DNA of 64,000 bases from positions 1 to 64,000 of the forward strand of contig NZ_JARXWI010000013.1 of the NCBI RefSeq assembly GCF_029893085.1, read 5' to 3'. The stretch is from Parabacteroides sp. PFB2-10. GTDB lineage: Bacteria; Bacteroidota; Bacteroidia; Bacteroidales; Tannerellaceae. The notes below the pieces were generated by a model. The model was not told where the DNA came from, did no database searches, and saw only the letters and a program-made list of their open reading frames with translations. This document shows, piece after piece, positions 22,997-39,785 of this stretch. Positions within the stretch are counted from its first letter, which is position 1. Each line of letters starts with the position of its first letter. The position numbers and the translations under genes are program-made.

Positions 22997-23004
22997 TACT
23001 TTTG
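22997..23004 (+). promoter_or_regulatory. -7 element of the BamA/TamA-family gene
   Basis: TACTTTTG matches TAnnTTTG and lies 21 bp before ATG 23026. It overlaps the possible upstream TTG start at 23002, which argues for the ATG as the real start. Confidence 0.55.
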
Positions 23005-23025
23005 CTTTCTAAAAGCAAAGAAAGG

Positions 23026-25380
23026 ATGAAAGGTTTGGTGCGTTTACTTTGTTGCTTGATATTTGCAGCTGTTTTAGCTTCCTGTAGCTCTACTAAATTT
23101 GTGAGCGAAGGAGAATATCTGCTTGACAAGGTGCAGATCGATTCCGACAATCCCGACTACAAACCGACCGACCTCAAGCCCTACCTTCGACAACAACCCA
23201 ATTTTAAGCTCTTCGGATTGGTCAGATGGCAGCTTTATGTCTACAACTGGTCTGGCCGCAACGATAAGAACTGGGTCAACAAACAACTCCGTCGAATCGG
23301 TGAAAAACCTGTATTGCTGGATACTACTTTGGTCGAACAGTCGGCGGACGAACTGAGCCGTTTCCTTTACAATAAAGGCTATATCAACGCAGAGGTAAAT
23401 GCTTCTGTCGATACGTCCCGCCATAAAAAGGCAACCGTTACCTATCATATCACATCCAACGATCCGTATCGCATTCGCCAGTACAATATGGAGCTCGACG
23501 ATCCGCGCGTCGATAGCATTGCCCATTTGCAGCCACAACACCGCTCGCGCTTGTCCGCAGCCTTCCGCTCCGCACCGGAGGGCCTTACCCCTTTGGTCAA
23601 AGAGGGTGCCCTTTTCGACCGCGATCTGCTCGACCAGGAGCGCCAACGCCTGACCACCCTCTTCAGGCGGCATGGCTACTATGCCTTCAACCGCGATCAC
23701 CTGGCCTATTGGGCCGATAGCTCTTTCCAACAAAATGTGGTGGATATGGGCATGGTGTTGCGCCCATTCAGACGGTATCAACCCGACGGGACATACGTCG
23801 ATACGCTTCACCGCCCGTTTTATATCCAGGATGTCACGATCCTGACCGACTATAACGCCCTGGATCTCGATGCCGATTCGCGCTTCACGCAGACCGATTC
23901 GGTGACAAACGGTAACATACATATACGTTATGGTATTTCGGGCAAGAGCATCCGCCCCGGTGTTTTGCGCAATGCCACCTACTTAGTGCCCGGCCAGATC
24001 TATAACGAGCGACAGGTCGAGCAGACCTATTCCGCCTTCTCTTCCTTGCATGCCTTGAAGAATACCAATATCCGCTTTGAGGAATTTGAAGAGAACGATA
24101 CCCTGAAATTGCATGCCACCATCCTGACATCACCGGCCAAACCGCAGAGTTTCGGGGTCGACCTGGAAGGAACGCATAATGCCGGTGACCTGGGCTTTGC
24201 CTCCAGTCTCAGCTATCAACATCGCAACCTCTTCAAGGGTGCCGAAGTGTTTACTGCCCGTATCCGCGGTGCGTACGAATCGCTTTCGGGCAACCGGGGC
24301 AGTGGACTCGACAGCTATTGGGAGTATGGAGGAGAGGCCTCCATCCGTTTTCCCAGCTTCCTCTTTCCGTTCATCAGTCATGATTTCAAACGTAAGCTGC
24401 GTGCTTCGACAGAATTGAGGGTCAGTTATAACAACCAGAGGCGTCCGGAGTATGAACGGGCGATCGTGTCGGGAGGCTGGAACTATATCTGGCAGGATAG
24501 GAGCAATGCACTGGCGCGCCATACCTTCAAACTGTTGGATGTCGATTATGTTTTCCTCTCGCGTGTGCAGAGCTCTTTTATCGATTCCCTGCCGGCTTCC
24601 ATGGTGTTGTATAATTATTCTGATCAGTTTATCGTTTCCTCCGGCTATACCTACTCGTTCAACAGCTATACGCCGCAGAACCGTATGCGCAATACCCATT
24701 CATTGCGTATCTCTTTCGAAGCAGCCGGTAATATATTGTACGGCCTATCTTCTCTTTTGAATGCCGACAAGGACAAAAACGGCCGTTATAAACTGCTTGG
24801 TATCAATTATTCTCAATTTGTGAAGGGAGATGTCGATTTCAGCAAGGGAATTATCCTCGACAACCGCAACCGCCTGGCCTTTCATGTGGGAGTAGGAGCC
24901 GCCATCCCGTATGGCAATGCCGAGATGATGCCTTTCGAGAGACGTTATTTCTCCGGAGGAGCTAACAGCGTGCGCGGTTGGTCGGTGCGTACCCTGGGGC
25001 CGGGAAGTATGCCACGCACATCGGCGACCAATTTTGCTTTGCAGGTGGGGGATATACGTCTCGATCTCAACCTGGAATACCGCACCAAACTGTTCTGGAA
25101 GTTTGAACTGGCCTCCTATATCGATGCCGGAAATATATGGACTATTCGCAAATACGAAGACCAGCCGAATGGTAATTTTGAATTCAAACGTTTCTACAAA
25201 GAGATAGCCGTCTCTTACGGCTTGGGGCTTCGACTCGACTTCGACTTCTTCTTAGTGCGTTTAGACACGGGAATGAAAGCCTACAACCCGCAAGAACGCG
25301 GCGATCGCCAGTGGCCCCTCCTGCATCCAAAACTCAGCAAAGACTTTGCCTGGCACTTTGCTGTGGGTTATCCGTTCTGA
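23026..25380 (+). CDS. BamA/TamA-family outer membrane protein (lipidated)
   Basis: The 784-residue product has an SPII signal peptide (LLCCLIFAAVLASC). POTRA-like repeats follow (about residues 30-420, e.g. KPVLLDTTLVEQSADELSRFLYNKGY and VPGQIYNERQVEQTYSAFSSL). A C-terminal 16-strand beta-barrel follows, with the Omp85 motif VRGWS in SGGANSVRGWSVR. It ends in a barrel-type aromatic residue (GYPF). It should insert or export outer-membrane proteins, or act as a TamA-like factor. A lipid anchor on an Omp85 protein is common in Bacteroidota. The ATG at 23026 is preferred over the TTG at 23002. Confidence 0.92.
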   Translation: MKGLVRLLCCLIFAAVLASCSSTKFVSEGEYLLDKVQIDSDNPDYKPTDLKPYLRQQPNFKLFGLVRWQLYVYNWSGRNDKNWVNKQLRRIGEKPVLLDTTLVEQSADELSRFLYNKGYINAEVNASVDTSRHKKATVTYHITSNDPYRIRQYNMELDDPRVDSIAHLQPQHRSRLSAAFRSAPEGLTPLVKEGALFDRDLLDQERQRLTTLFRRHGYYAFNRDHLAYWADSSFQQNVVDMGMVLRPFRRYQPDGTYVDTLHRPFYIQDVTILTDYNALDLDADSRFTQTDSVTNGNIHIRYGISGKSIRPGVLRNATYLVPGQIYNERQVEQTYSAFSSLHALKNTNIRFEEFEENDTLKLHATILTSPAKPQSFGVDLEGTHNAGDLGFASSLSYQHRNLFKGAEVFTARIRGAYESLSGNRGSGLDSYWEYGGEASIRFPSFLFPFISHDFKRKLRASTELRVSYNNQRRPEYERAIVSGGWNYIWQDRSNALARHTFKLLDVDYVFLSRVQSSFIDSLPASMVLYNYSDQFIVSSGYTYSFNSYTPQNRMRNTHSLRISFEAAGNILYGLSSLLNADKDKNGRYKLLGINYSQFVKGDVDFSKGIILDNRNRLAFHVGVGAAIPYGNAEMMPFERRYFSGGANSVRGWSVRTLGPGSMPRTSATNFALQVGDIRLDLNLEYRTKLFWKFELASYIDAGNIWTIRKYEDQPNGNFEFKRFYKEIAVSYGLGLRLDFDFFLVRLDTGMKAYNPQERGDRQWPLLHPKLSKDFAWHFAVGYPF

Positions 25381-25456
25381 TCATTTCCTCCTAACTATCC
25401 CTTTCCCCTTCCCCTATTCTCTTCTGGGGAATCGGTGTAGCTAAACAGCGACAAGA

Positions 25457-25740
25457 ACCAATTTCTCTTCCAGTAAGGTAAGAAGAGAAAACTTGTACCT
25501 GCTGCATATTGTGCCGCGGGAGCCACACAGACACGATGAAGGAATAACGGGCGGAAAGGTTGTTTTCCGGTACGTTGTAAATTAAATAGGGGTAGCTTCG
25601 ATTATCCTCTTCTTCTTCCAATTCTTCCATTCTTTCAGTAACAACAACGAACGATCCTTTCGGAAAGTTCTCTTGATGGAGTGAATAAGCGATGTTGGTC
25701 GTTCCTCCTTCAAGAGTCGGAAAGCCATTGACAGCGGGGG
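25457..25740 (-). pseudogene. Collinear mosaic remnant of the pilus operon
   Basis: Four consecutive pieces match four separate places in the adjacent pilus operon, on the same strand and in the same order. 25488-25525 equals 27446-27483 exactly (38 bp). 25530-25571 matches 28341-28382 (two mismatches). 25563-25692 matches 31575-31702 (a 3 bp insertion and substitutions). 25691-25739 matches 32116-32164 (one mismatch). Junctions show short shared sequence, such as TTTTCCGGT between pieces two and three. A hairpin-like segment before piece one (25457-25487) loosely resembles the 3' flank of the operon. It looks like a duplicated copy of about 5 kb collapsed by successive deletions. It encodes nothing intact. 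Confidence 0.85.
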
Positions 25741-25930
25741 GGAGCTATACGGACTAAAGACACATGGTTTGGAGCCAAATATACATCCTATATGCATCGA
25801 AGGATGCCGGCTCAAAAAGCGCTTATTGCTATTGCACGCAAAATACTGATGATCGTATGGCATATTGTATTGCACATAAATGCATATTTACCTATTGAAA
25901 AAACCTCTTTTGAGGATCGGATATACCTAA
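25741..25930 (+). pseudogene. IS110-family transposase C-terminal remnant
   Basis: Read in the frame of 25741, the sequence gives GAIRTKDTWFGAKYTSYM followed by HRRMPAQKALIAIARKILM and IVWHIVLHINAYLP. This is the characteristic C-terminal part of IS110/IS116/IS902 transposases (RTKD..LGA+Y......KRA..A.A.K.L...H.). The rest of the transposase is missing: upstream the sequence switches directly to the mosaic remnant. The original IS end and the point of truncation cannot be fixed without a reference copy. Confidence 0.75.
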
Positions 25931-25973
25931 AGTCAGATCAGAAGGGATCCTGGAGTTATTTAATTATAAAGGA

Positions 25974-26103
25974 AATGTTAAAATATCGATTGTAAGCAAA
26001 ACGGCCGTTTTGCTTACAAATCCATACGTTAAAAAGTGTTTCTCCCGGGAGTTTGTAAAAAAAGCCCTGCCGGTTCGGAAAAAAAGTCCCGCGTTTTTGA
26101 CAA
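25974..26103 (-). repeat. Dispersed palindromic repeat, copy D (truncated)
   Basis: The palindrome-bearing half of the ~184 bp repeat is present: AATGTTAAAATATCGATTG, the 30 bp perfect palindrome TTGTAAGCAAAACGG/CCGTTTTGCTTACAA, then CGTTAAAAAGTG and TCTCCCGGGAGTTTGT. After 26056 it is interrupted by unrelated bases before AAAAAGTCCCGC, and the other end is lost. It is the only damaged copy of the five. Confidence 0.8.
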
Positions 26104-26265
26104 AATGATATTTGGCTAAGGCCGATCTTCGATTCGCTTAGCGCAGCGTAAAGCAATTTGATAATCGCTTAACGAGCGAAGCGAAGTGCAAAGCAAAATG
26201 ATATTTGGCTAAGGCCGATCTTCGATTCGCTTAGCGCAGCGTAAAGCAAAATGATATTTTGGAAA
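26101..26265. repeat. 56 bp direct repeat, 93 bp period
   Basis: Identical 56 bp units (26101-26156 and 26194-26249) contain GGCCGATCTTCGATTCGC and CTTAGCGCAGCGTAAAGC. They are separated by a spacer with related palindromic bits (ATCGCTTAACGAGCGAAGCG). A third copy begins at 26247 and stops after a few bases. No protein is encoded. Two units with a palindromic spacer do not make a CRISPR array. Confidence 0.85.
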
Positions 26266-26281: not shown

Positions 26282-26533
26282 GATTGGAAGATCGTGTTAT
26301 TGACAATTTTTGGTGACAAAATTTCTCCTCCTTAGCAAAGGAGGAGTACCCGAACGAAGAGAGGGGGAGGTGGTTTGATCATTTATATATTTGTCAACAA
26401 CATAACATATATAGAGTTACACCAAACCACCTCCCCCCTCGTACCTCGGGGTACTCCTCCTTTGCTAAGGAGGAGAAATTTGGATACTATTTTGTTACTA
26501 AAAAACCTTCACATTTTCCCAGATTGGAAGATC
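26282..26533. repeat. Hairpin element flanked by 12 bp direct repeats
   Basis: A long imperfect inverted repeat has arms of about 58 bp (26319-26376 and 26424-26481). Each arm contains the self-complementary unit CTCCTCCTTAGCAAAGGAGG, and an AT-rich loop of about 47 bp separates them. The identical 12-mer GATTGGAAGATC lies on both sides (26282-26293 and 26522-26533), as a target duplication would. The arms differ by several bases and small gaps. The unit resembles multicopy intergenic hairpins known in Bacteroidota genomes. Confidence 0.75.
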
Positions 26534-26641
26534 AATAGCAATCGCAGAATAGTTACAAGAGGTCACTTTTCTTCCTTTAAGGCAAGAAGAAGAGAAACGT
26601 AAAAATCTGAGTTTTAATGGAGGGCAGCCCTTTGTCTTTGC

Positions 26642-28489
26642 TTATCGGAAGTAGGTGATAACAACATATCCGTTGGAAGATGGCCGTGTTGTATTGGTTG
26701 GAAGGGTGAGGCCGGGGTTGGGCGCTTGAGTAGCGACATAATTCTGGCCACCTTTGCCACCGCCGCCGCCTCTGGAGTTTGATCCTCCACCAGCTTTTCC
26801 TCTTGCTCCGCCATTTCCTCCGTATAGGTATCCACCGCCACCGCCGCCACCGGCTCCGCCCCACGCGGCAACCCCACTTCCGGTCTCACCATTAGCTCCT
26901 GCACTACCATTAGTGTCGCTACTCGCTGTTGTAGCTCCGGCTCCTCCACTATTAGAGGCATTATCCCCATTGTCGGCATTACCATCACCTCCCATGCCAC
27001 CGCTGCTGCCGGTACCTGTTGAATTTCCACTACCACCACCACTGCCTGCTGCACCGCCGGAGCAAATTAATGTTCCGCTCAATGCGTTAGATGAAAGCAC
27101 GAATGTAGCTGCTCCGCCTCCTCCTCCTGCTCCGGCATAGTTATAGCCTGAAAGGCCTACCCAACCTCCACTGGCATCACCACCTTTTCCTCCATTCCCA
27201 TAACTCCAATTATTGGTTCCTCCATTTGCCCCGGTTCCAGATCCTTGATCACCAGAAGCCATACTAGCTCCGGCTGAACCTACATATATAAACAATGGTG
27301 TATCTTTCTCTAATTTATATAACCCGGACGCTTTTATCGCTTTTCCTCCATCTCTTTGAGTGTTCGAAGACCTCTCTCCTTTTCCGCCTTTACCTCCATC
27401 ACCTCCCCAGGCTTCGATATAGTAGTAGCCGGATTTAGAAACCGTAAAACTTGTACCTGCTGCATATTGTGCCGCGGGAGCCAGACGGATCCGGTGAATC
27501 TTGCCTCTTTCGAAGTTTACTCCGGAGGTGGTGTATAATGTTTTGTAAGCATTACTGGAGGAGGCCGTAGTGAATGTGAATGTTAATGTTTGTCCGGATA
27601 GATCTTTCACGGGCATAGGGATATACACTGCGCTTCCATCGCCTGCGGTAAGGCCGCCATCCGATATATTGACAGTCACGCTGTTGGAACCTCCTGAAAG
27701 TGTATAGGTGCTATCCAGCGGATTGTACTGCATAGTGCCATTGATACGGGTTGCATCGCTTGTGCTGCTTCCAACCGTCATGGTAATAGAAGTGACGGCA
27801 TCCGGCATAAGCCGTACATCCATCTCGATGGCTGCATAGGAGAGGATATGCTCGTAGTCGAAATGCAGTCCGCCCAACTGATAAACAGGGTCTACATCGC
27901 CTTCGGGGAAAAATATCTCCGGTTCTTCATTCTTTACAACAGCAACCATGGGTGCATACTTCGCCGGTACAAATGTATTGGACGCGATGGTGTAGGAACT
28001 CAGCATCGTGAATTGCAGGGTAGAAGGGAAAGAAGCAGAAGCCAGGCCATTGATGTTATGGGGAAAGAAAGAGTAAAAGTCGAAATGGGTTCCCGCATCC
28101 ATTAAGTTTTGGTATTGGACTTGAACAAGATCAGTTAGAAAAGTGGTACGCAGGGCAGGCTCCAGATTCATTGCTGTCAGCTCCATATTTTTGAAGCCTG
28201 AAACAATATTTACTGGCTCATTCACCTTCGTGACAGACATAACCACTTGATCTCCCTTGTCCCACCAATACTCATACGTATCCAGATTCAACGTGGCACG
28301 CGTATCGGGCATTTCCCCTTTTGTCTGGCTGCGTCCTCCGGACACGATGAAGGAATAACGGGCAGAAGGGTTGTTTTCCGGTTTCCCTTTTTCATTATTC
28401 TTATAGATACCTTCTTCTTGCGCGCACGACAAGGCACACAAAGCAAGGATAGCCATCCATATTTTCCGTATATATAGGTTTGTCTTCAT
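26642..28489 (-). CDS. Fimbrillin-like lipoprotein with glycine-rich C-terminal domain
   Basis: The 615-residue product is a lipoprotein (lipobox ALSC). Residues about 25-340 look like a fimbrillin/Mfa1-like beta-sandwich, with the SARYSFIVSGG start and FDYEHILSYAAIEMDV, the family H-L core. Residues about 345-615 form a different domain. It opens with FTVSKSGYYYIEAWGGDGGKGG, is glycine-rich throughout, and closes with NGYVVITYFR. This bracket matches the glycine-rich domain known from ALK/LTK-type receptors and several bacterial surface proteins. It is the last gene of the pilus operon, so a tip adhesin or terminal surface subunit is a reasonable inference. Two pieces of this gene (27446-27483, 28341-28382) recur in the mosaic remnant next to it. 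Confidence 0.82.
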   Translation of the reverse strand: MKTNLYIRKIWMAILALCALSCAQEEGIYKNNEKGKPENNPSARYSFIVSGGRSQTKGEMPDTRATLNLDTYEYWWDKGDQVVMSVTKVNEPVNIVSGFKNMELTAMNLEPALRTTFLTDLVQVQYQNLMDAGTHFDFYSFFPHNINGLASASFPSTLQFTMLSSYTIASNTFVPAKYAPMVAVVKNEEPEIFFPEGDVDPVYQLGGLHFDYEHILSYAAIEMDVRLMPDAVTSITMTVGSSTSDATRINGTMQYNPLDSTYTLSGGSNSVTVNISDGGLTAGDGSAVYIPMPVKDLSGQTLTFTFTTASSSNAYKTLYTTSGVNFERGKIHRIRLAPAAQYAAGTSFTVSKSGYYYIEAWGGDGGKGGKGERSSNTQRDGGKAIKASGLYKLEKDTPLFIYVGSAGASMASGDQGSGTGANGGTNNWSYGNGGKGGDASGGWVGLSGYNYAGAGGGGGAATFVLSSNALSGTLICSGGAAGSGGGSGNSTGTGSSGGMGGDGNADNGDNASNSGGAGATTASSDTNGSAGANGETGSGVAAWGGAGGGGGGGYLYGGNGGARGKAGGGSNSRGGGGGKGGQNYVATQAPNPGLTLPTNTTRPSSNGYVVITYFR

Positions 28490-28501
28490 TACTCAACAGT
28501 A

Positions 28502-29659
28502 TTAAAACTCATATATATCCTCTCCATCTTCCGGTGATTCCAGATCTCCGCTTATTACCACATTCAGATACATCCGGCGAGAATCGTCCTGCACATTGGA
28601 AACACCGTCCACATAAACGTTTACTCTGTATATACAGTTACGATCGATATCAAAATTACCATACAATGGAGTACTATTTTCGTATCCCTTACCAACAAGC
28701 ACGTAGGTTTGAAGCACCTCGTTATCTTCAGCATTTCCCTGAAAATTGAATTCAAAGGCGAATTTAGGAGCCTTTGCCTTTCGATCTTTCGCATTCAAAT
28801 TCGCAACAGTTCCCCTACGGTTCTCGAGACAATAGACTTCAAGGTAATGCCATTCATATCTATTAGGAGGTTGTTCCTCGATGGGGTGGTTAACAACGCG
28901 GCGAATATCAGTTAGGGAAGAGCGGTTGTAACCTGCAGTAACAGGCGTAAGGGATTGGGGATAATCATCTTTAGCTCCAATTTCATCAATGGTCGTGTGA
29001 CGTTCGACGATCCAGGAGTAGGCGGGAAGATTGTTTGAATAGCACGAGAGCAATTCCACACTGGAAAGATTATTTCCCGAAGCATCCACCAGATTGTATA
29101 TATTAACTTCCATTTTGGAATACAGGCTGCGCAGTTTGAGTGTAACAGTCGTTGTCTGGATTGGATTGTTTAATGTAACTACTGCAAACGGACTGGTTTT
29201 GGAACCACTGATCATCGGCATTTTAGTAGGTGCTTTACCTGGTTCTGCCGAAGAGATAAAGTATTTATTGTTAAGGTGAGCTATATTGGTTACATCATCG
29301 AAATAGGTCTCCGCCGTATAGTCGTCGGGGCAGTTGGCATCGACGAGGTTAGCGATAACAAATACCCGGTAGGTACCGCCCCTTTTTAAATATACTCTCT
29401 CGCCGTCGGTATACTTGATAGTCCGGCGATGAAGCACCTTATCCTCGGTTCCGTCAAACACGATAATGGTAGCGTTTTCAATCGCGGTTAACGAGGGATC
29501 GATACCGGCACGTGACACCTGTACCGATCCGTTTAACCCCACCAGTTCGATAGCAACCAGCTCCTCTTCTTCGATCGGCAGCTCCGTCTTACTGCATCCT
29601 GCGAAGAGGACCAACAGCAACAAAGCATATATTATATATCGTATCGTTTTCATCTTCAT
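28502..29659 (-). CDS. DUF4906/FimA-like fimbrial (tip-type) lipoprotein
   Basis: The 385-residue lipoprotein (lipobox FAGC) has two beta-sandwich parts. Features typical of Bacteroidales FimA/DUF4906 minor subunits are visible: ATIIVFDGTEDKVLHRRTI early (the mini-fimbrial domain), VTLKLRSLYSKMEVNIYN in the middle, and YRVNVYVDGVSNVQDDSRRMYLNVVIS at the end. Such proteins are minor or tip subunits of type V pili, transported as lipoproteins and then processed. It lies 12 bp upstream of the glycine-rich gene. It is less like the fimbrillins than the next six genes are to each other. Confidence 0.75.
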   Translation of the reverse strand: MKMKTIRYIIYALLLLVLFAGCSKTELPIEEEELVAIELVGLNGSVQVSRAGIDPSLTAIENATIIVFDGTEDKVLHRRTIKYTDGERVYLKRGGTYRVFVIANLVDANCPDDYTAETYFDDVTNIAHLNNKYFISSAEPGKAPTKMPMISGSKTSPFAVVTLNNPIQTTTVTLKLRSLYSKMEVNIYNLVDASGNNLSSVELLSCYSNNLPAYSWIVERHTTIDEIGAKDDYPQSLTPVTAGYNRSSLTDIRRVVNHPIEEQPPNRYEWHYLEVYCLENRRGTVANLNAKDRKAKAPKFAFEFNFQGNAEDNEVLQTYVLVGKGYENSTPLYGNFDIDRNCIYRVNVYVDGVSNVQDDSRRMYLNVVISGDLESPEDGEDIYEF

Positions 29660-29671
29660 ATCTCAAATCTG

Positions 29672-30910
29672 TTAATCGTATCGCTGATCGAACCACCATT
29701 CCTCCGCCTCGGCCGCTTCGAGTCGGATCTCCGCCGTTTCTAATAATTTGAAGGCCAGGTTATATATTTTCCCTGCTAACGGCATGACGCCAGTCTTCTC
29801 CGGATCGAAGTCATAAGTAACATACACCGGATTATTCTTACCTCGGATGGAAGTAAATATACTGAACGTATAGGTTTGCGCAGGCATAGCAAGCATATAG
29901 CCGAATTCCACCGCTGCGGCCGTAGCGTAGGTAGTAGGTAGTGACAAAGAGCCTGTCACCGGATTACCGTTCGTGTCTTTGGGACGAACTGCCGGGTATT
30001 CGGTGGTTAATCCCCGCTCCGCGTCGAAAAGCTCATCATCATATTTACCTGCGTCAGCCTGTTTACCTATATTCAATCCTATTCTCTTTGGCTGATTAAT
30101 AAGTTTCACGGAGTCGATGGTGCCATAAAGACTTTTCGCCAGTGCGCTCTCGGCAAAGAAATGACACCGCAAGGCGGTGAGCTTGTGCGAAAAGGTCAGT
30201 GCCTCAGTGAAGGGATGCTCAATATTTCCTCCTCCCATAGTCGAAGCCATGATGTCCTGACTTCCGTCTACCTCGAAGACTACCGCCGCCCCTAAAACAT
30301 CATCCCAGATGATGGTTCCATTCTCATCCTCTTCAACGTTTTCAATATCATAGATAGCATGATAGGGATAGAATGCCACCATGTAATAGTAGATCCCCAT
30401 CTCGTCGTAAAAAACCTGTTGAATGGCATCTCCCTTACGGTTGGTATATTCGATATTTCCCGTCCAAACGGTAGGGCCGGTGGCACCGGCATGAGGATCG
30501 GGGGTTATAGGGTCATCGGATGCTTCTTCGGTATAATTTCCAGGTTTGTCGTTTGGGGATTGCCCCCCGAAGAACCCGTAGTCAAGGTAAGTAGTCGGGT
30601 CATTCCATTCCGCGACGGTAGGGGGAGTATTATTTTCGTAAGAACCAAACTCTATCGTCACGATCCCTATTTTCAACTGATAGGGCGGGAGCCCGTCGCT
30701 GTTTGGAATGGGATGAATCATACCACCGGGATCGTTATACTCGTCATCGGCGCGCGTGGGGATACCCGGAGCCGGCAAAGAACCGCTCAACTCAACACGT
30801 GCCTTTTCGGGTCTCTTTGTCGGAATGGGTGTATCTTCCTCATCGTTGCATCCAAAGAGCAGCGTCAGGCAGCATAAGGCGATTATATAGAGCGTTTGTC
30901 TCATATCCAA
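29672..30910 (-). CDS. Fimbrillin-family (Mfa-like) lipoprotein
   Basis: The 412-residue lipoprotein has lipobox LLFGC and an acidic N-terminus. The beta-sandwich pattern of the fimbrillin family is visible: an H-K-L-T-A-L core in FTEALTFSHKLTALRCHFF, and a late strand IYNLAFKLLETAEIRLEAA. It differs from the three closely similar fimbrillins in lacking the TKAP segment. It lies 3 bp after the upstream fimbrillin stop and 12 bp before the tip-type gene, so it is part of one transcript. It is probably a minor pilus subunit. Confidence 0.75.
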   Translation of the reverse strand: MDMRQTLYIIALCCLTLLFGCNDEEDTPIPTKRPEKARVELSGSLPAPGIPTRADDEYNDPGGMIHPIPNSDGLPPYQLKIGIVTIEFGSYENNTPPTVAEWNDPTTYLDYGFFGGQSPNDKPGNYTEEASDDPITPDPHAGATGPTVWTGNIEYTNRKGDAIQQVFYDEMGIYYYMVAFYPYHAIYDIENVEEDENGTIIWDDVLGAAVVFEVDGSQDIMASTMGGGNIEHPFTEALTFSHKLTALRCHFFAESALAKSLYGTIDSVKLINQPKRIGLNIGKQADAGKYDDELFDAERGLTTEYPAVRPKDTNGNPVTGSLSLPTTYATAAAVEFGYMLAMPAQTYTFSIFTSIRGKNNPVYVTYDFDPEKTGVMPLAGKIYNLAFKLLETAEIRLEAAEAEEWWFDQRYD

Positions 30911-30913
30911 TTA

Positions 30914-32065
30914 TTAAAATCCCTCAATCTCCCGTAGTGTCTCATCTTCCAGCCATTCATCTATGGGGTTACTACTCTGAAATTCAATCCACGCCCCCGA
31001 GATGGATAACTTCACAATGAATGTCATCACATAGCCCGGCTTATTCAGCTTCACGTCAGGGAAAGGCATCGTTATATAATGTTCCGTATTCGATGGGGAA
31101 TCCGAGGCATCGTGATGGATGAACGCGACGTTTACCGCCGTAAAATTCTTACTAAGCTCGATATTCTGCGGAATGATCATCAGGCAATTTGCATAATCTC
31201 TTCCACCCATAGGCTCTAATGCACCGGCATCTACCATCAACGGATCTTCCCATAGGTAGTCGAACGCGTAGTCTGCGGGTTCGTATCCTTCATCATCATT
31301 CAATTCGGGTATATTGGTCCAGGTGGCGGTAGCCATATCAAACCGGCCGGTATTGATAATGCGTCCCGCTGTCATATTAAATTCGGTGACTTCGTAGCGT
31401 TCGACCTCGTTCGGTAAAGGATCATCATTCTCTACCAAAGGGGCAATCATAAAGCGAAGCCAGAGCAGCGCGTGCTTCATGTTGTACTTCACGCTGCCAT
31501 TGTTTTTTTCGTAGTTGATGTTTTGCACATCCGCATTATATTCCGAATAGAGCAGGTCGATCTGCTCGCTCATATTTTCCGGTACGCTGTAAATTAAATA
31601 GGGGTAGCTTATAGTATCCTCTTCTTCCAATTCTTTTATTTTCTCAGGAACAACAGCGAACGATCCTTTCGGAAAGTTCTCTTGATGGGGTGAATAAGCG
31701 AAGAAGGTATTCTTTATCGCTGGGTTGGCGGGCCAATAGGCTATGGGGGTGTAACTCCAGGATGATAACTCACCGGTCTCTTCATTCACAACCATTCGTT
31801 CGGCAAGCGCGTTATCGAATAGGTTGGGCGCTGTCTTACCATTAAAATCGTCCGTTCCCGTTGAGTAACCGATAATGCCAAGCGAGAGTATCTGGTCGGC
31901 CGTAGTCGTAACCTCCGCTTTGGTCAGGTCGGCATCTACATATAAACCGATCTTACGCGAGTTGTCCGGTGGTGTAGGCTCCTCTGCTTGTTCTTTGTCG
32001 CAACCCCATAACAGAGTTGCAAACAGGAATAATCCGATATATATATTACGGTTCATCATCATCAT
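30914..32065 (-). CDS. Fimbrillin-family lipoprotein
   Basis: The 383-residue lipoprotein begins MMMMNRNIYIGLF; the lipobox is LLWGC. Fimbrillin hallmarks include KAEVTTTADQILSLGIIGYSTG, the AYSPHQENFPKGSF segment and NMKHALLWLRFMIA. The segment EELEEEDTISYPYLIYSVPEN (31575-31702 at the DNA level) is the source of the third mosaic piece at 25563-25692. The start overlaps the stop of the upstream gene (ATGA). The ATG cluster leaves the exact start uncertain within 9 bp. Likely a structural or accessory subunit of the same pilus. Confidence 0.78.
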   Translation of the reverse strand: MMMMNRNIYIGLFLFATLLWGCDKEQAEEPTPPDNSRKIGLYVDADLTKAEVTTTADQILSLGIIGYSTGTDDFNGKTAPNLFDNALAERMVVNEETGELSSWSYTPIAYWPANPAIKNTFFAYSPHQENFPKGSFAVVPEKIKELEEEDTISYPYLIYSVPENMSEQIDLLYSEYNADVQNINYEKNNGSVKYNMKHALLWLRFMIAPLVENDDPLPNEVERYEVTEFNMTAGRIINTGRFDMATATWTNIPELNDDEGYEPADYAFDYLWEDPLMVDAGALEPMGGRDYANCLMIIPQNIELSKNFTAVNVAFIHHDASDSPSNTEHYITMPFPDVKLNKPGYVMTFIVKLSISGAWIEFQSSNPIDEWLEDETLREIEGF

Positions 32066-33669
32066 TTTTTTCTTATGATAAGCGTTCCTGGGTTGGTAAG
32101 CACATCCGATGGGTTGATGTTGGTCGTTCCTCCTTCAAGAGTCGGAAAGCCATCGACAGCGGGGAGTGTGGCAGACGTGGTGCCGTCTACATCATCTATC
32201 TCATAGCCTCCTTCACTTGCCCATTTCTCCCAGTCGATTCCCGGATGATCGCCTGTCTTGATCGTCTGTTTGGCTGACACAAGATCCCAATTCTCTTGAT
32301 AATTCTTCAGGACAACAGTAGATTGCCTGGTTGGGTCATCATGATCATTGGGGTCGGTGGGGTCGCCGTGGTACGTATCCCATTTGCGAATCAGTTTCTT
32401 CATGTCGAACATAACATGCTGCCCCGTCTTGAAACTGGATAACAGACCCGCAGTGGTCAGCACTGCCACATCAAACTCCATATCGTGGGTTACATCGTTC
32501 ACACCATACAAGCCAAAATACTTGTATGTATGCGAAAAACTATTTGCGTTGATCTTATTGAGTACATCCAGGGCGAATAGCATGTTTTCCGCATCTTTTT
32601 TTCTGTACATGGTAAGCATAATCGTTTGCAACACAAGGCTGGTAGCCCACTCGCCGATTGTTATATCATCGGAATCAGCCACCTCGACGCTGATTTCGTT
32701 TCCCCGGAAGTTCAAGGTGACATTAAATGAACGGCCTTGCGTAGATCCTTCAAAGGGAGTACTCTCCGTTTTCAGATCCAGTCCAATTGTTTTGTCGCTT
32801 CCATTGGAGGTCTTAATGCGCAACGTATATTCATTGCCGTCACCTGCCGTAACCGGCGCAGCAAGGATATAAGCTTGTGGTGCCAGATCATCACTCTTCA
32901 GGGCGATAGGGATCCCGGTAGAATAGTTTGAAACCGGTGTATCGTCTGCTACCAGATGTGCGCTTAGCGTGCTGATACTATTGTCTACCGAATAGGCGGA
33001 GTTCACGGGAACCGCTGCTCCCATATTCGCAGCACCCAATGATACGGTTACTTTGTTTTTGGTATTCGTCAATTGTAAATCCGTAATATCTCCCCAAGCC
33101 GCCGGTATACCAGCGTTTTCAGTTACCAGTGTGATATGCAGCTTTGTCAACAGGTGGTTGAATGTAAATTCCGGCTTCTCCGCCGCCTGCGAGATGTCCG
33201 AAGAGGTTTGCAGGGCAAACATCACATCCTCTTTACCGGTAAAGGTAAAAGAGGCGGTGGTAGTCGGAGAAGCGCTCCAGCCGGTAGCTGGATAGAGGCC
33301 GCAGAAATAAAGCGAAGAGCCATCGAGTTCATAAAAACTCTTTCCCGAAAATCCTTCCGTATCATACGGTGTTCTTCCTGCCCCTGTGAAGGTCATCGTG
33401 CCGTCGGCATGAAGCTTGCCGGTTGACGCCGTATAATCACCGGAGGTTTTCGAGGCAAGTACCCGCGCCTTTAACGGACTATCCACGCTCGGGCTCGTCT
33501 CGTTATAGGGCGCTTTGGTCTCGACGGAAGGTTGACGCAGGGAGGTAGCACTGGCGACAATCTCCGCCCCCGTATTGCCTCCGATGAAGTCAGGGTCATT
33601 GTCTGAACAACCAGACAAGAGCCCTAATCCCATCAAACAAAGAAATAGTATGTGTCTACCCTTTTTCAC
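32062..33669 (-). CDS. Fimbrillin-family lipoprotein with extended C-terminus
   Basis: The 535-residue lipoprotein (lipobox LLSGC) has an N-terminal fimbrillin part (about 20-330). Its signatures are VETKAPYN, LKARVLASKT, FTFTGKEDVMFALQTS, FTFNHLLTKLHITLV, AAWGDITDLQLTN and FNVTLNFRGNE, which are shared with the next two upstream fimbrillins. The extra ~200 C-terminal residues (GEWATSLVLQTIMLTMYRKK to LTNPGTLIIRKK) are not fimbrillin-like and I do not recognise them. The 3' end supplied the fourth mosaic piece. It is one of three closely related paralogues in the operon. The extension may make it a modified major or tip subunit. Confidence 0.8.
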   Translation of the reverse strand: MKKGRHILFLCLMGLGLLSGCSDNDPDFIGGNTGAEIVASATSLRQPSVETKAPYNETSPSVDSPLKARVLASKTSGDYTASTGKLHADGTMTFTGAGRTPYDTEGFSGKSFYELDGSSLYFCGLYPATGWSASPTTTASFTFTGKEDVMFALQTSSDISQAAEKPEFTFNHLLTKLHITLVTENAGIPAAWGDITDLQLTNTKNKVTVSLGAANMGAAVPVNSAYSVDNSISTLSAHLVADDTPVSNYSTGIPIALKSDDLAPQAYILAAPVTAGDGNEYTLRIKTSNGSDKTIGLDLKTESTPFEGSTQGRSFNVTLNFRGNEISVEVADSDDITIGEWATSLVLQTIMLTMYRKKDAENMLFALDVLNKINANSFSHTYKYFGLYGVNDVTHDMEFDVAVLTTAGLLSSFKTGQHVMFDMKKLIRKWDTYHGDPTDPNDHDDPTRQSTVVLKNYQENWDLVSAKQTIKTGDHPGIDWEKWASEGGYEIDDVDGTTSATLPAVDGFPTLEGGTTNINPSDVLTNPGTLIIRKK

Positions 33670-33685
33670 GCTATAAGTTTACTAC

Positions 33686-34786
33686 TTATTCTACATCTAC
33701 CGCAGCGCCGCCCGATGCAACCCATTCCGCTACAGTAGCCGTAGCCGTAATGCCTGTTGCTTGGAATGTTAATGCGATCTCAAAAGATTTACCTTGGGTA
33801 GATCCCGTAAATTCAGTAGATGGCGCATCCTTTTGCCTTAAATTTATCTTTACTTCACGACCTCCCGTATAAGTAGAAGAATAGATTTTTAATGTAAAAT
33901 CAGCTGTTCCGGTTGCTGTGATGGGTGCCACCATAGCGTAAGCGTTAGGAGAGTCAGGGAAATTAGTGCCCAATGTTATAACTTTATCTCCATCTCCACC
34001 AGTTTCTACTTCTGAAACCGCAACATCTGTTCCCGTATGATAGAAGGGGATAACGACCGTTGTTGATCCACTTTTGGAAGGAACCACGGCTGGTATAGGG
34101 GTGCCTTCTGCCGGCTTTGTTGCCATCGTTACTGTTACCGTATTAAGCGGTTCTACCGCTGCTCCTCCAGCTTTTATTAAATCTATCCCTGTGATATTCC
34201 CCCAAGCAGCTTTCCCATCAGTATCCGCTTTCACAGACACATTCAACAGGGTCAATAGGTGATTGAATTCCAGATTAGGAACAGTTCCACCAAGAGCAGC
34301 ATCTTTTGTATTGGATACCTGCCAGGCATACATTACATCTTCTTTACCGGTAAAGGTAAAAGAGGCTTTTTTAACAGCATCACCGCTAGCATCCGAAGCA
34401 GGAAGCGTCCATGTATCATACGGATGGAATCCGCTGAAATAGATAGCTGAATTACTCCCTGGATAATAGGTGGTAGTGGAAGGAGTAGTTTCATAACCTA
34501 CCGCAGTAGGCGTTCCTTCAGAGCTTATGAAAATCATTTTTCCGTTTGAATAAAGAGACTTATACTCAAGCGATGTTGCTGAAGAAACAACCCGTGCTGT
34601 CAAATTCGCAGTTGTTCCCGGCGTTGTATCCATATACGGTGCCTTTGTCTCTACGCCAATCGCCAGGCTTTTGGCGCTTAGGGTGATCGCTACCGGATCG
34701 GTCTCTTCGGGTATCAGTTCATTATCTCCCGAGTTACAGGCACTCAACAGACAAATGGATAATGCGAATACTAAATACTTTTTCAT
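33686..34786 (-). CDS. Fimbrillin-family lipoprotein
   Basis: The 366-residue lipoprotein (lipobox LLSAC) has the shared segments VETKAPYMD, FTFTGKEDVMYAWQVS, LEFNHLLTLLNVSVK and AAWGNITGIDLIK, and ends VAEWVASGGAAVDVE. The TKAP region lies where the N-terminal donor strand of FimA pilins lies, and an Arg (LTARVVS) follows it, which is where a gingipain-type protease cuts related pilins. This makes it a candidate major or structural pilin. A 26 bp run identical to the next paralogue (33228-33255 and 34344-34371) marks recent homology between the genes. Confidence 0.82.
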   Translation of the reverse strand: MKKYLVFALSICLLSACNSGDNELIPEETDPVAITLSAKSLAIGVETKAPYMDTTPGTTANLTARVVSSATSLEYKSLYSNGKMIFISSEGTPTAVGYETTPSTTTYYPGSNSAIYFSGFHPYDTWTLPASDASGDAVKKASFTFTGKEDVMYAWQVSNTKDAALGGTVPNLEFNHLLTLLNVSVKADTDGKAAWGNITGIDLIKAGGAAVEPLNTVTVTMATKPAEGTPIPAVVPSKSGSTTVVIPFYHTGTDVAVSEVETGGDGDKVITLGTNFPDSPNAYAMVAPITATGTADFTLKIYSSTYTGGREVKINLRQKDAPSTEFTGSTQGKSFEIALTFQATGITATATVAEWVASGGAAVDVE

Positions 34787-34821
34787 TTTTGTATGTATTT
34801 AAATTGTTCTTTATTTATTTT

Positions 34822-35898
34822 TTATTCGATAGTACCTGCTCCTGTTCCGCCGGCTACCCAATCGGTCACTGTTGCCGTAGCTTTGATTTCTGTTCCTTTG
34901 AAAGTAAGCGTAACATTAAAAGCATATCCCGCCGTATTTGTTACTTCAGCATTTTTTGGGGTAAGCTGTACTGTAACAGGGATGGCAGTCGTGGCAGTCG
35001 TTGTTTTTATATTCAGTACATAAGCGTTTTGTGCGTCTGTACCAGACAGCGTAACCGGTGTTACCAATGAATAAGCCACCCGTGCTGCTGCAGTGGGGAT
35101 TTCAATACTTTTCTCTCCCAAATTGGCAACAACAGTATCTTTAGCATGATAGGCAGTTGCACCTGCTTTGTAGAAAGGAATAGTTCCGGTAGTACCGAAT
35201 GTAACAGCGTTTGTAGAGAAAGTCACGGTTGCGATCGTATTTACCGCAGCAAGCCCTGAGCTACCCTTTGCCTGCGTTAAACTAAGATCGGTGATTTTGC
35301 CCCAGGCAGCAGATGTTTCTGCTTTAGCCGTAGCATCATCACCGCCTGCCACCACCAATATATTCAGTTTTGTCAGCTTATGTGTGAAGGCTAACGTAGG
35401 ATAAGAAGGGGTCGTGCCCGTTGCTGCAGATTTACTGGTACTCACTTGCGCCGCTGTCATAATATCGCTCTTCCCGTCAATCGGGTGAGTCGTTGCTGTT
35501 CCAAAAGTGCTCCATCCGCCGGTGCCAATGGCAGCCGGATAAAGCCCCACCATATAGATGGTCTGATCCCCGGGAAAAGATTTGTTTCCACCGGTTTCGA
35601 TAGAGGCAAAAGCGACAGGTGTTTCTCCATTAGCCGTAAATGTCATCGTCCCGTTTGTATGGAGCGCTGAATAATTATCTTCTGTTTTAGAGACCAACAC
35701 CCTTGCGGTTAAATTGTTGGTGCCGCTAATCGCCCCTTCAAACGGTGCTTTTGTTTCCACCTCCAAGGTCAACGCTTTGGATTTAGCCATAATTGCTACC
35801 TCCTGCGTGTTGTCAAAACCGTTGTCATCCTTTGAGCAACCGGTCCATGCCGTAGCCATTCCTATGGCGGCTACCATCCATAAATAACTTTTCTTCAT
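34822..35898 (-). CDS. Fimbrillin-family lipoprotein
   Basis: The 358-residue lipoprotein (signal MKKSYLWMVAAIGMATAWTGC) shares LTLEVETKAPFEG, LTARVLVSKT, SAAWGKITDLSLTQAK and FNVTLTFKGTEIKATATVTDWV with the next two downstream genes. Its composition, rich in Ala, Thr and Gly, is typical of an abundant pilin. The C-terminal DWVAGGTGAGTIE matches the C-terminal strand of these subunits. It has 58 bp to the upstream gene and 35 bp to the next. It is a good candidate for a major pilin. ATG 35904 is an alternative start two codons earlier. Confidence 0.82.
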   Translation of the reverse strand: MKKSYLWMVAAIGMATAWTGCSKDDNGFDNTQEVAIMAKSKALTLEVETKAPFEGAISGTNNLTARVLVSKTEDNYSALHTNGTMTFTANGETPVAFASIETGGNKSFPGDQTIYMVGLYPAAIGTGGWSTFGTATTHPIDGKSDIMTAAQVSTSKSAATGTTPSYPTLAFTHKLTKLNILVVAGGDDATAKAETSAAWGKITDLSLTQAKGSSGLAAVNTIATVTFSTNAVTFGTTGTIPFYKAGATAYHAKDTVVANLGEKSIEIPTAAARVAYSLVTPVTLSGTDAQNAYVLNIKTTTATTAIPVTVQLTPKNAEVTNTAGYAFNVTLTFKGTEIKATATVTDWVAGGTGAGTIE

Positions 35899-35962
35899 GA
35901 TCATTCTTTTTTAAATTATTACTTGTTTTTATTATTTTCTTCTTTTATAGTTGTTTTTACGC

Positions 35963-36916
35963 TTATCTATCTATCGTGCCCGATCCTTCGCCTCCCTCTT
36001 TCCAGGGGGTGACCCAGGCGGTCGTTTCTATATCCACCTCTATCTCTTCCTCTTTTTTCCGGAACGTCAGGGTGATCTCATACGAATGCCCCGCGGCAAA
36101 AGTGGATTCACCCAGAGGGGTTATGCATACATCCCGGAATATGCCTTTGTTGTCGGTCGCGATGTCCAGATAGAACTGTCGCAATCCGGGTTGCAACATC
36201 AGGCTGCCGGCAATCTTCTGTGGCTTCTCCTCTGTGCCCGTTATCTTCACGGGATAGGAAGAGGGGAGAGCAATATGTTGCGGATTAGACCAATCACCCA
36301 AATTGCCATCTTCGATATACAAGACAGAAGAGGTATTGACATCCCTGAATGTGATACTTTCTATGGCCGTTTCGCTAAAGTCACCCTCATCGATCAAGAC
36401 AAAATGGAACTGGCTCAACAGATGGTTATAGGCTAAAGAGGCCGGTATTTTATTGTCGGATCCGACCACCGGATCGGCATACATCAGGTCTTCCTCGCCT
36501 GTCAGGGTGAAGTGAAGTAACGGAGCGGCTCCCGTTTGCTCTTCCATATAGTTCGCCCCTGCTTCGCCGGTCGGCGCATACGGATAATAGGAGTAGAAAC
36601 GTACCTCTTCGCGGTAGGGATAATAATAGGTTCCTTCCCACTGAAGCCTGCCTGTCTCTGTATCGACAGCAGTTGTGCGCACATGGGGCATCACCGCCGG
36701 TAGCGACCAATCGGTGATGGCATAGATGCCTATCCGGTCGCCCATCTTGGCCAGGTCGGAGAGATCGTTGACGGAGGCACGCGATTCATAGGCATCAGTT
36801 TTCACCCCCAGCGTTATTTTAGCGCAAGAGGGCACCGGTGCCGTCTCCTCTTTCACGCAAGAGAACAGGGCGCAGATGCCAAAACAGGCTACTATGAATC
36901 GTTTAGTTTTCATCAT
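35963..36916 (-). CDS. Fimbrillin-family lipoprotein
   Basis: The 317-residue lipoprotein (lipobox LFSC) is shorter and more diverged. It keeps the fimbrillin plan: ITLGVKTDAYESRA, HFTLTGEEDLMYADPVV, LAYNHLLSQFHFVL and a C-terminal YEITLTFRKKEEEIEVD followed by WVTPWKEGGEGSGTIDR. It overlaps the preceding gene by 4 bp (ATGA), so the two are translationally coupled. It may be the anchor-proximal subunit, given its position after the FimB-like gene. Confidence 0.78.
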   Translation of the reverse strand: MMKTKRFIVACFGICALFSCVKEETAPVPSCAKITLGVKTDAYESRASVNDLSDLAKMGDRIGIYAITDWSLPAVMPHVRTTAVDTETGRLQWEGTYYYPYREEVRFYSYYPYAPTGEAGANYMEEQTGAAPLLHFTLTGEEDLMYADPVVGSDNKIPASLAYNHLLSQFHFVLIDEGDFSETAIESITFRDVNTSSVLYIEDGNLGDWSNPQHIALPSSYPVKITGTEEKPQKIAGSLMLQPGLRQFYLDIATDNKGIFRDVCITPLGESTFAAGHSYEITLTFRKKEEEIEVDIETTAWVTPWKEGGEGSGTIDR

Positions 36917-37827
36917 TCTGTTATATCTCCCGTACCTTTTCCCTCTTCCCAGGGTTTAACCGTTGCTGTCAGGCCACCGTCGATCACCTCCAGCTCTACC
37001 TCAATCTCAACGGGAATATCGATTGGTATATCACCTTTGTTGCTGTCCAGTATGTCGGTTATAACCTCGCTCAGGTCGACCTCTGCCCAATAAGTGTTCG
37101 ATTCGTCGTCTTCGAGTACCACATGCATCTTGTTATGATAATGCGTTCCATTGGACGGATTATAGAGTCCCAATAGGTGAATAACTGCCGTAGCCGTATT
37201 ATCCTCGCTTAGTTCAATGTCAAAAGGGATCTTCCAGTCGGTCTCATCGCCAACGGGCAGTCCGGTCGCCAGGTAAACAGCATAATAAACACCTTCGAGC
37301 ATACCACTTATGCGCTGATATTCATCGCCATTTGTAACACTAAACTGTAGGAAAAGCGTTCTTGTCAGGGCATACATCCGGGAATGTACGATTGTTTCCT
37401 CTTCGGCAGTAACCATGGCTGATTCCACTGCCAGGCGGAAGGCGTTTTCGGAAGGGAGGAGTTCTTTGGCGTCAGTTTTTGTCTGATCGACCCGGATAGC
37501 GGTTGCTTTCGCCTGATGGTAATCATCGAGATCCGTAAAGTCGAGACCCAAGGTATTGGTGTTATGGCTGATAAGGGAATAAATGCCTGCTTCGGTAGTG
37601 ATACTATATTCCGACGAAGCGGTTTCCAGGTGTAAGGGGGTCGCCTCCATCTGGTAGAGATGGGTATTAAGCACAGGGGTTACCTCTTGTTCTTCCCACT
37701 CGGGATAAACATGCAGTATGCCTTTTGTCTCCTTAGTCTTCTCTTGCAACGTAGCTTCCGTGCAAGCAATCATAAAAAGAACAAAGACAAATAACCCTAT
37801 TACTAAAAATCGATTCCTTACTTGCAT
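36913..37827 (-). CDS. DUF5119/FimB-Mfa2-like lipoprotein
   Basis: The 304-residue lipoprotein has a signal peptide (LFVFVLFMIAC) and starts the mature part KTKGILHVYPEWEEQEVTP. The GxLHVYPEW motif is typical of DUF5119 proteins, which follow DUF3575 genes in Bacteroidales pilus clusters. The C-terminus is an isolated W-x-G strand PWEEGKGTGDITE, as in the fimbrillins downstream. By synteny it corresponds to the FimB/Mfa2 role of membrane anchor and length control. It is the second gene of the operon. Confidence 0.78.
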   Translation of the reverse strand: MQVRNRFLVIGLFVFVLFMIACTEATLQEKTKETKGILHVYPEWEEQEVTPVLNTHLYQMEATPLHLETASSEYSITTEAGIYSLISHNTNTLGLDFTDLDDYHQAKATAIRVDQTKTDAKELLPSENAFRLAVESAMVTAEEETIVHSRMYALTRTLFLQFSVTNGDEYQRISGMLEGVYYAVYLATGLPVGDETDWKIPFDIELSEDNTATAVIHLLGLYNPSNGTHYHNKMHVVLEDDESNTYWAEVDLSEVITDILDSNKGDIPIDIPVEIEVELEVIDGGLTATVKPWEEGKGTGDITE

Positions 37828-37860
37828 TCAATTATATCATGAATCACTGATATCTTTCCC

Positions 37861-38535
37861 CTAAAATCGGTAAGCCAGGCTGATATTCCACTCCATGACT
37901 CCCCATTTGTTCGCTTTTTCTTCTCCGATATAAAATTTATCAGGATCGCTCCACTCATACGCGCGCGCGTTAGAATCTCTATATCCCGCGCGAACGCCTG
38001 TTTCAACACCTAATCCTTTATAAATAGTCCAATAGTATCCAACAGAAAGCCCAGCCTGCCAATATTTTCCGGTATAATTATCCGTTGGGCGGGTCGCATT
38101 TGCTGTTTTACTCTTATTGCGCACATCGTAATCTCCGGCTCCTATAAATGCCCCGACATAAAGCCCGGTATTTTTATTCCCCATCAACCAACGACGTGGC
38201 TCCATACTATAACCAGAAACGCCCCAAAATGTTCGCTCAGCCCCGTAATTCCAATACGCGTACATCGCAGACGCTTGTAGCGACCACTGGGAAGAAATGA
38301 AATATTCAACTGTGAGATTAGGGGTAAAAGCGGTATGCTTGAACTCCGATGTGAATCCGATCCAACGTAAACTGTTTGTTTTAAAGGCTAATAGAGGAGA
38401 TTCCTTTTCTTTTACTTCCTGAGCACCTGATTCAAGAATCTCTTTTTTTTGCTCAGCATGAAGCGGAACAAAACTCCATAGTATAAAAATCAACACATGC
38501 AATATACCCCTACTCTTATTGTAAGCATTATTCAT
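37861..38535 (-). CDS. DUF3575 outer-membrane-like protein
   Basis: The 224-residue protein has a signal peptide (HVLIFILWSFVPLHA). Its mature part matches the DUF3575 family: LLAFKTNSLRW near the start, FTPNLTVEYFISSQWSLQASAMYAYW, RRWL, GLYVGAFIGAGDYDV, and an end in MEWNISLAYRF, typical of an outer-membrane beta-barrel. DUF3575 genes open fimbrial loci in Bacteroides and Parabacteroides, as here. It is the first gene of the operon; no TAnnTTTG promoter is obvious in the 350 bp upstream. Confidence 0.85.
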   Translation of the reverse strand: MNNAYNKSRGILHVLIFILWSFVPLHAEQKKEILESGAQEVKEKESPLLAFKTNSLRWIGFTSEFKHTAFTPNLTVEYFISSQWSLQASAMYAYWNYGAERTFWGVSGYSMEPRRWLMGNKNTGLYVGAFIGAGDYDVRNKSKTANATRPTDNYTGKYWQAGLSVGYYWTIYKGLGVETGVRAGYRDSNARAYEWSDPDKFYIGEEKANKWGVMEWNISLAYRF

Positions 38536-38828
38536 TAATACGCTCTATTATAGAACCATATACACCCTTCATCAAACAATAACAAAAAATTTCCCCCTTA
38601 TATTCAATAAAGTTTGTACACTTACCTGTTAAATTAAAAATACAGCCAATGAATTTCCACACTTATCCTTCTACAAAGGAAGGCATTTTATTTGATAATA
38701 CGAAAAAAACCAGCGATTTATCATTGGTTTTCTCTACAAATTGATCATTTCACACTTCTTTCGCTTCATTTATAGTCCGAAGCACCCACCTGGGAGCCTC
38801 TCGTCCGCTGAAAAAGAAGGGATAAGAA
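38536..38828. other. Intergenic region upstream of the pilus operon
   Basis: About 290 bp before DUF3575 and after the rpoD terminator hold no gene. A weak inverted repeat (AAAACCA/TGGTTTT, 38711-38733) and AT-rich stretches are visible. No paired inverted repeats flanking a promoter were seen, so an invertible promoter is not supported. A leader or regulatory region for the pilus operon is likely, but not demonstrable from the sequence. Confidence 0.4.
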
Positions 38829-38861
38829 CAAAAAAACTGCCACCCCTCAACGGGATGGCAG
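38829..38861 (-). terminator. Rho-independent terminator of rpoD
   Basis: On the minus strand CTGCCATCCC, a 5-base loop and GGGGTGGCAG (one mismatch or G-U pair) are followed by TTTTTTT. It ends the rpoD transcript 27 bp after its stop codon. Confidence 0.9.
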
Positions 38862-38887
38862 CACAAATAATTTCTTTTGAAGAGGTT

Positions 38888-39748
38888 TTACCCTAAATAA
38901 GTTTTTAGGAGCTTGCTACGTGTTCCTTGTCTCAATCTTCTGATTGCCTTTTCTTTGATCTGGCGGACGCGCTCTCTTGTGAGGCCAAATTTGTCGCCAA
39001 TCTCTTCTAATGTCATTTCCTGACAGCCAATACCGAAAAACATTTTGATTATCTCACACTCTCTTTCGGTCAATGTAGCAAGCGCTCTATCAATCTCCTT
39101 AGCTAATGATTCGTTCATCAACGACCGGTCGGCGATCGGAGCATCATCGTTCACAAGTACGTCTAAGAGGCTGTTGTCTTCGCCTTCCACGAACGGAGCA
39201 TCCACCGAGATATGACGTCCGGACACCTTCAGGGTATCGGAAATCTTATCAACAGGGATATCCAATTCATCTGCCAGCTCTTCGGGAGAAGGACGACGTT
39301 CGTTTTCCTGTTCGAATTTCGAGAAGGCTTTGCTGATCTTATTCAGCGAACCTACCTGATTCAACGGGAGACGAACAATACGTGACTGCTCTGCCAACGC
39401 CTGCAGAATAGACTGGCGAATCCACCATACCGCATAAGAAATAAACTTAAAACCACGCGTCTCGTCGAATTTTTCTGCCGCTTTAATCAAACCCAGGTTG
39501 CCTTCATTAATCAGGTCGGGCAAACTTAAGCCTTGATTTTGATATTGCTTTGCAACAGAAACAACGAAACGCAAATTGGCTCTTGTCAATTTCTCTAATG
39601 CTTTACGGTCTCCTCTTTTAATAGCCTGTGCCAATTCTACTTCCTCTTCCACCGTGATAAGATCTTCACGCCCAATCTCTTGGAGATACTTATCAAGGGA
39701 AGCGCTTTCGCGATTGGTAATGGACTTGGTAATCTTTAGTTGTCTCAT
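38888..39748 (-). CDS. rpoD: Primary RNA polymerase sigma factor (sigma-70)
   Basis: The 286-residue sigma factor contains region 1.2 ([27 protein letters not shown]), region 2 with the -10-binding segment [14 protein letters not shown], region 3 ([18 protein letters not shown]) and region 4 with the [23 protein letters not shown]. It lacks a long N-terminal region 1.1, as is known for the Bacteroides primary sigma factor. It recognises the TTTG/TAnnTTTG promoters listed here. The start is at ATG 39748 (MRQLKITKS). A longer frame upstream would cross the promoter at 39778. It is monocistronic with its own terminator. Confidence 0.96.
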
Positions 39749-39777
39749 CCAATTTGTTTCATTGAAAATATGGGGTG

Positions 39778-39785
39778 CAAAGTTA
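39778..39785 (-). promoter_or_regulatory. -7 element of rpoD
   Basis: The minus strand reads TAACTTTG, a match to TAnnTTTG 29 bp before the rpoD start. This places the start of transcription inside the longer possible frame and supports the 39748 start. Confidence 0.6.

What the first reader, a model, noticed from the sequence alone, without database searches (positions are those of the whole stretch)
25457..25740. Collinear mosaic remnant of the adjacent pilus operon
A 280 bp stretch carries four pieces that match 27446, 28341, 31575 and 32116 in order and on the same strand (three different genes). Identity is high: 38/38, 40/42, about 90% and 48/49. Two junctions show short shared sequence (TTTTCCGGT; GA). 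The simplest reading is a duplicated ~5 kb of the operon reduced by repeated deletions at microhomologies. An alternative is a silent donor cassette for fimbrillin recombination, since the pieces are still close in sequence.
Basis: seen in the sequence. Interest (0 to 1): 0.8.

Follow-up and report, generated by a model that had tools for sequence, protein, structure and literature searches.

The report
Shredded relic of duplicated pilus operon
Just past the end of a bacterial pilus operon lies a 289-base scar made of four, perhaps five, short pieces of that same operon in the original order, most likely the last trace of an old extra copy that was almost wholly deleted; it is a clean example of ordinary genome decay and shows no sign of function.

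Summary
Window 25488-25739 consists of four pieces that match 27446, 28341, 31575 and 32116 (+), in order and on one strand. A probable fifth piece (25451-25486 versus 26555-26590, the operon's 3' flank) extends the chain. Splicing the native operon at four points (removing 851, 853, 3201 and 416 bp at shared AAA, CGGA, TTTTCCGGT and GA) gives 289 bases that align over the whole of 25451-25739 with no filler. The scar is unique in its genome and absent from four other genomes of the genus. Compared with homologous operons in two relatives, the scar keeps the older state at three or more sites that the native operon has lost, and it carries its own changes. Differences are mostly amino-acid-changing, and no start codon precedes the fused frame. 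So it is an old, non-coding by-product of the operon's ancestor, neither a misassembly nor a recent copy. Best reading: tandem duplication followed by microhomology deletions (about 62%). Serious rival: one microhomology template-switching event (about 27%), because four deletions leaving islands of only 40-130 bp is unusual. The silent-cassette idea has no support. Interest is modest.

The parts
25451..25486 (+). Probable piece 0: remnant of the operon's 3' flank (native 26555-26590; both copies have a hairpin-like TTTCTCTTC...GAAGAGAAA)
   Evidence: score 30, shuffle maximum 23 in 200 shuffles against the local flank (p<0.005); more diverged than the other pieces (7/34 versus 16/264, Fisher p=0.009), so tentative
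25488..25529 (+). Piece A: from the last operon gene (native 27446-27489)
   Evidence: 38/38 identical, then two substitutions around the CGGA junction
25530..25571 (+). Piece B: from the 5' part of the same gene (native 28341-28382)
   Evidence: 40/42 identical; ends in TTTTCCGGT shared with piece C
25563..25692 (+). Piece C: from a fimbrillin-like gene (native 31575-31701)
   Evidence: 89% identity, 11 mismatches and one 3-base insertion that keeps the frame
25691..25739 (+). Piece D: from the 3' part of the next fimbrillin-like gene (native 32116-32164)
   Evidence: 48/49 identical
26642..28489 (-). Source gene of A and B: last operon gene, 615 aa, glycine-rich C-terminal part, no Pfam or NCBIfam match
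30914..32065 (-). Source gene of C: Mfa_like_1 fimbrillin-like protein (PF13149, E=1.6e-12)
32062..33669 (-). Source gene of D: Mfa_like_1 fimbrillin-like protein (PF13149, E=2.1e-12)
26642..38535 (-). Native ten-gene fimbriae-type operon (Mfa_like_1, weak FimA/FimD-type and DUF3575 proteins)
23002..25380 (+). Flanking convergent gene tamL (translocation and assembly module lipoprotein)
   Evidence: NF052279, 814.6 bits against a cut-off of 400

Best explanation
An ancestor carried a second, tandem, same-strand copy of at least 5.6 kb of the fimbriae operon (native 26555-32164), immediately downstream of the present one. The extra copy was not maintained. Four or more deletions between short shared sequences (AAA, CGGA, TTTTCCGGT, GA) removed about 95% of it and left five short islands joined without filler. 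The remnant then drifted without coding constraint while the native operon went on evolving. Shown: the pieces, their order and strand, the zero-filler junctions, the shared ancestry with later independent divergence, and the lack of a start codon. Inferred: that an intact duplicate once existed and that the deletions were separate events.
For: Pieces in order and on one strand; if template segments were chosen at random, four pieces in this order and on this strand would have a chance of about 0.003. Splicing the native sequence at four points reproduces all of 25451-25739. All four junctions have microhomology; chance of at least 9 bp is 1e-4, at least 4 bp 0.018, at least 3 bp 0.055 and at least 2 bp 0.16. 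The relic sits directly downstream of the operon, as one copy of a tandem duplication would. The E-rich insertion in piece C is present in the native gene and the relic but not in the two relatives, so the copy arose in this lineage after that change. The relic keeps ancestral states at three sites (Thr codon in C, TCC in B, Asn in D) where the native copy changed, and has its own changes (Pro to Leu in B and in C, Ser to Asn in C). Most differences change amino acids, and stops lie just upstream of the fused D-C-B frame, so there is no coding constraint.
Against: No genome with an intact or half-decayed second copy was found. Under random decay, five islands of at least 30 bp with no shorter ones occur in at most about 3% of simulations for any deletion length tried; five or more islands occur in 23-35% with mean deletions of 100-200 bp, but in about 3% or fewer with mean deletions of 500 bp or more. 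Piece 0 is more diverged than the others (p=0.009). The junctions D-C-B keep the native reading frame (chance 1/9), which pure decay does not predict.
Confidence: 0.62

Rival explanations
1. One-step templated insertion: during repair or restart of a broken fork downstream of the operon, the polymerase copied several short patches from the operon, jumping forward at microhomologies (MMBIR/FoSTeS-like). The mosaic was born as it is and no full duplicate ever existed.
For: Islands of 40-130 bp with 2-9 bp microhomology at each junction are what serial template switching gives; the MMBIR paper reports discontinuous duplications with 2-5 bp junctional microhomology (PMC2621351). Decay simulations seldom leave this many clean islands.
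Against: All pieces lie in one order and on one strand, which free template choice does not predict (about 0.003 for four pieces), although forward skipping along one template would. No inverted or out-of-order patch and no non-templated bases are seen.
Confidence: 0.27
2. Silent donor cassette: the mosaic stores variant fimbrillin sequence used for gene conversion of the expressed operon.
For: The pieces are still about 94% identical to the native copies (16 mismatches in 252 columns) and lie in the same orientation next to the operon.
Against: It mixes three genes and a 3' flank, with 38-130 bp of homology each. The native operon and the relic each keep independent changes, with no shared recent tract against the two relatives. 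One locus is no cassette array, and the relative G002 has none beside its operon, only dispersed repeats.
Confidence: 0.03
3. Functional antisense RNA: read-through from tamL, which ends at 25380 on the + strand, carries the mosaic and pairs with four sites of the operon mRNA, which is transcribed from the - strand.
For: Strand and position are right; no + strand terminator-like site was found between tamL and the mosaic.
Against: Unique to this genome; no promoter-like site, no Rfam match, folding no better than shuffles (z -1.0); no conservation can be tested.
Confidence: 0.04
4. Assembly artefact joining reads from the operon.
For: Reads cannot be inspected here, and the sister genome's contig breaks 113 bp past tamL.
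Against: 16 substitutions and a 3-base indel in 252 columns, several in the ancestral state shared with relatives, cannot come from reads of the present operon; 2-9 bp overlaps are too short for an assembler.
Confidence: 0.01

Closest known systems
Highly degraded bacterial pseudogenes removed by deletion (Kuo and Ochman 2010, PMC2916853)
   Same: Non-coding relic of a gene copy, reduced mainly by deletions
   Different: Here the relic is a chain of several short islands from three genes of a still-intact neighbouring operon, so every junction can be read exactly
MMBIR/FoSTeS complex rearrangements (PMC2621351, 2009)
   Same: Discontinuous duplicated patches with short microhomology at each junction
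   Different: All patches are in source order and on one strand, with no inversion
Silent fimbrial or pilin donor cassettes (general knowledge, e.g. pilS of Neisseria)
   Same: Partial, unexpressed copies of pilus genes near the expressed locus
   Different: No array, no complete variable domain, several genes mixed, no conversion tract

Membership tests
Pseudogene relic of a duplicated operon | Homologous to a functional locus, with order and strand kept | tested here: met
Pseudogene relic of a duplicated operon | No intact reading frame or start; amino-acid-changing differences unconstrained | tested here: met
Pseudogene relic of a duplicated operon | Duplicate once complete (intermediate or intact copy in a relative) | tested here: inconclusive
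   none found in four same-genus genomes or G011; no same-species strain held
MMBIR/FoSTeS templated insertion | Microhomology at each junction | tested here: met
   also met by deletion
MMBIR/FoSTeS templated insertion | Pieces arise in one event, inserted into a previously continuous site | not testable with these tools
   no relative with the empty site; the sister contig ends 113 bp after tamL
Silent donor cassette | Conversion tracts shared between donor and expressed gene | tested here: not met
   independent divergence on both sides, judged on two relatives only
Silent donor cassette | Substantial part of one expressed gene present | tested here: not met
   38-130 bp from each of four places in three genes

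The most novel reading that the evidence does not exclude
The mosaic is transcribed as part of the tamL 3' end and acts as a multi-site antisense RNA on the fimbrial mRNA, i.e. a regulator born from debris of its own target.
Probability: 0.03. Interest if true: 0.75.

Novelty: new member of a known kind. Interest (0 to 1): 0.3.

Why it matters
It is a fully readable example of how a bacterial operon copy disappears, or of a template-switch scar: each junction can be placed, nothing is left over, and polarised substitutions show that it is not recent. If more strains were sequenced it could separate stepwise deletion from one-step template switching in a bacterium. It reveals no new gene system.

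Tried and rejected
Searched for more of the chain to the right (25741-25985): no match to the operon, to its upstream side or to related genomes. Looked for a similar mosaic downstream of the operon in G002: the repeats there are dispersed elements of that genome. Looked for further operon copies in the own genome: none. Looked for the empty site in the sister genome G003: its contig ends 113 bp past tamL, and its rpoD block has other neighbours. Tested a chimeric gene: D-C-B are in frame, but stops lie directly upstream and A is out of frame. No Rfam family, promoter-like site or unusual fold. Phage records: no match. A paper search for bacterial duplication remnants with microhomology gave nothing useful.

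Full report
OBSERVATION. Each piece scores far above shuffled sequence (76, 74, 190 and 93 against shuffle maxima of 24-30). The chain has no parallel elsewhere in the window, and the operon has no other copy in the genome. The left edge can be pushed out by a weaker, probable fifth piece, 25451-25486 against 26555-26590, in the operon's 3' flank; it scores 30 against a shuffle maximum of 23.

ANATOMY. If native 26555-26597, 27449-27489, 28343-28382, 31584-31701 and 32118-32164 are joined, the result is 289 bases long and aligns to 25451-25739 in 293 columns with 22 mismatches and 8 gap columns, and no base is left unexplained at any junction. The four joins remove 851, 853, 3201 and 416 bp. 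The shared bases are AAA, CGGA, TTTTCCGGT and GA. In 200,000 random joins within the same region, 9 or more shared bases occur with frequency 1e-4, 4 or more with 0.018, 3 or more with 0.055 and 2 or more with 0.16. The CGGA reading requires two later substitutions beside the join, and the AAA reading depends on the tentative fifth piece. The other two junctions are unambiguous.

SURROUNDINGS. The source is a ten-gene operon on the - strand (26642-38535) of fimbrillin-like proteins (Pfam Mfa_like_1, weak FimA/FimD-type matches, DUF3575). The relic lies between its 3' end and the convergent tamL gene. A homologous operon exists in one same-genus genome (G002) and in G011, one of whose contigs has the same length (21587) and the same match as a contig of Parabacteroides sp. 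OttesenSCG-928-G21. The nearest relative, G003 (TamL 96% identical), has no detectable copy of this operon, and its contig stops 113 bp after tamL, so the empty site cannot be read.

AGE AND CONSTRAINT. With G002 and G011 as outgroups, the relic keeps the older state at three sites where the native operon changed: a Thr codon that became Pro in the source of C, TCC that became TCT in B, and Asn that became Asp in D. It also has its own changes: Pro to Leu in B, Pro to Leu and Ser to Asn in C. Both copies therefore descend from one ancestor and have diverged independently. An E-rich insertion in piece C is shared only by the relic and the native gene, so the copying happened in this lineage. 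Most differences change an amino acid. The D-C-B joins happen to be in frame, but stops lie directly before the frame and no start codon is present; A is out of frame. The relic is not a gene.

MECHANISM. Tandem duplication with deletion at microhomologies accounts for order, strand, position, junctions and lack of filler. Its weak point is island size. In simulated random decay to 200-400 bp, five or more islands of at least 30 bp are found in 23-35% of runs if deletions average 100-200 bp, but in about 3% or fewer if they average 500 bp or more, and five islands with no tiny ones in at most about 3% for any length tried. The simulation's deletion lengths are assumed, not measured. A single template-switching repair event (MMBIR-like; PMC2621351) makes short patches naturally, but would not by itself demand source order and strand (about 0.003 for four pieces with free choice). 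I put deletion at 62% and template switching at 27%. The remaining ideas (cassette, antisense regulator, artefact) have little or negative support.

VERDICT. A real, well-preserved genomic scar of a known kind (a degraded duplicate), notable mainly because every junction can be read. Interest 0.3.

Noticed in passing
25972-26160: Dispersed repeat element with dozens of copies (many 93-99% identical over 84-100 bp) across the same genome and diverged copies in the sister genome G003; contains a perfect 15-bp inverted repeat (TTGTAAGCAAAACGG/CCGTTTTGCTTACAA).
   Followed up: partly
26313-26493: Second dispersed element: 59-bp arms, 86% complementary, shared with G002, G003, G004 and G011, several copies at or near contig ends, so probably an assembly breaker.
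   Followed up: no
26101-26163 and 26194-26256: Direct tandem copies of a 63-bp unit, 97% identical, between the relic and the operon.
   Followed up: no
26642-28489: Last operon gene: glycine-rich C-terminal part, no Pfam or NCBIfam match, conserved as last operon gene in G002 and G011.
   Followed up: no
33214-33255 and 34325-34366: 42-bp stretch 93% identical between two neighbouring fimbrillin genes (encodes FTFTGKEDVM), perhaps a conversion tract or a strongly kept motif.
   Followed up: no
L077 (G003 C1) versus window 38828-41663: The rpoD block has different downstream neighbours in the sister genome, so the operon lies at a rearrangement or insertion breakpoint.
   Followed up: partly
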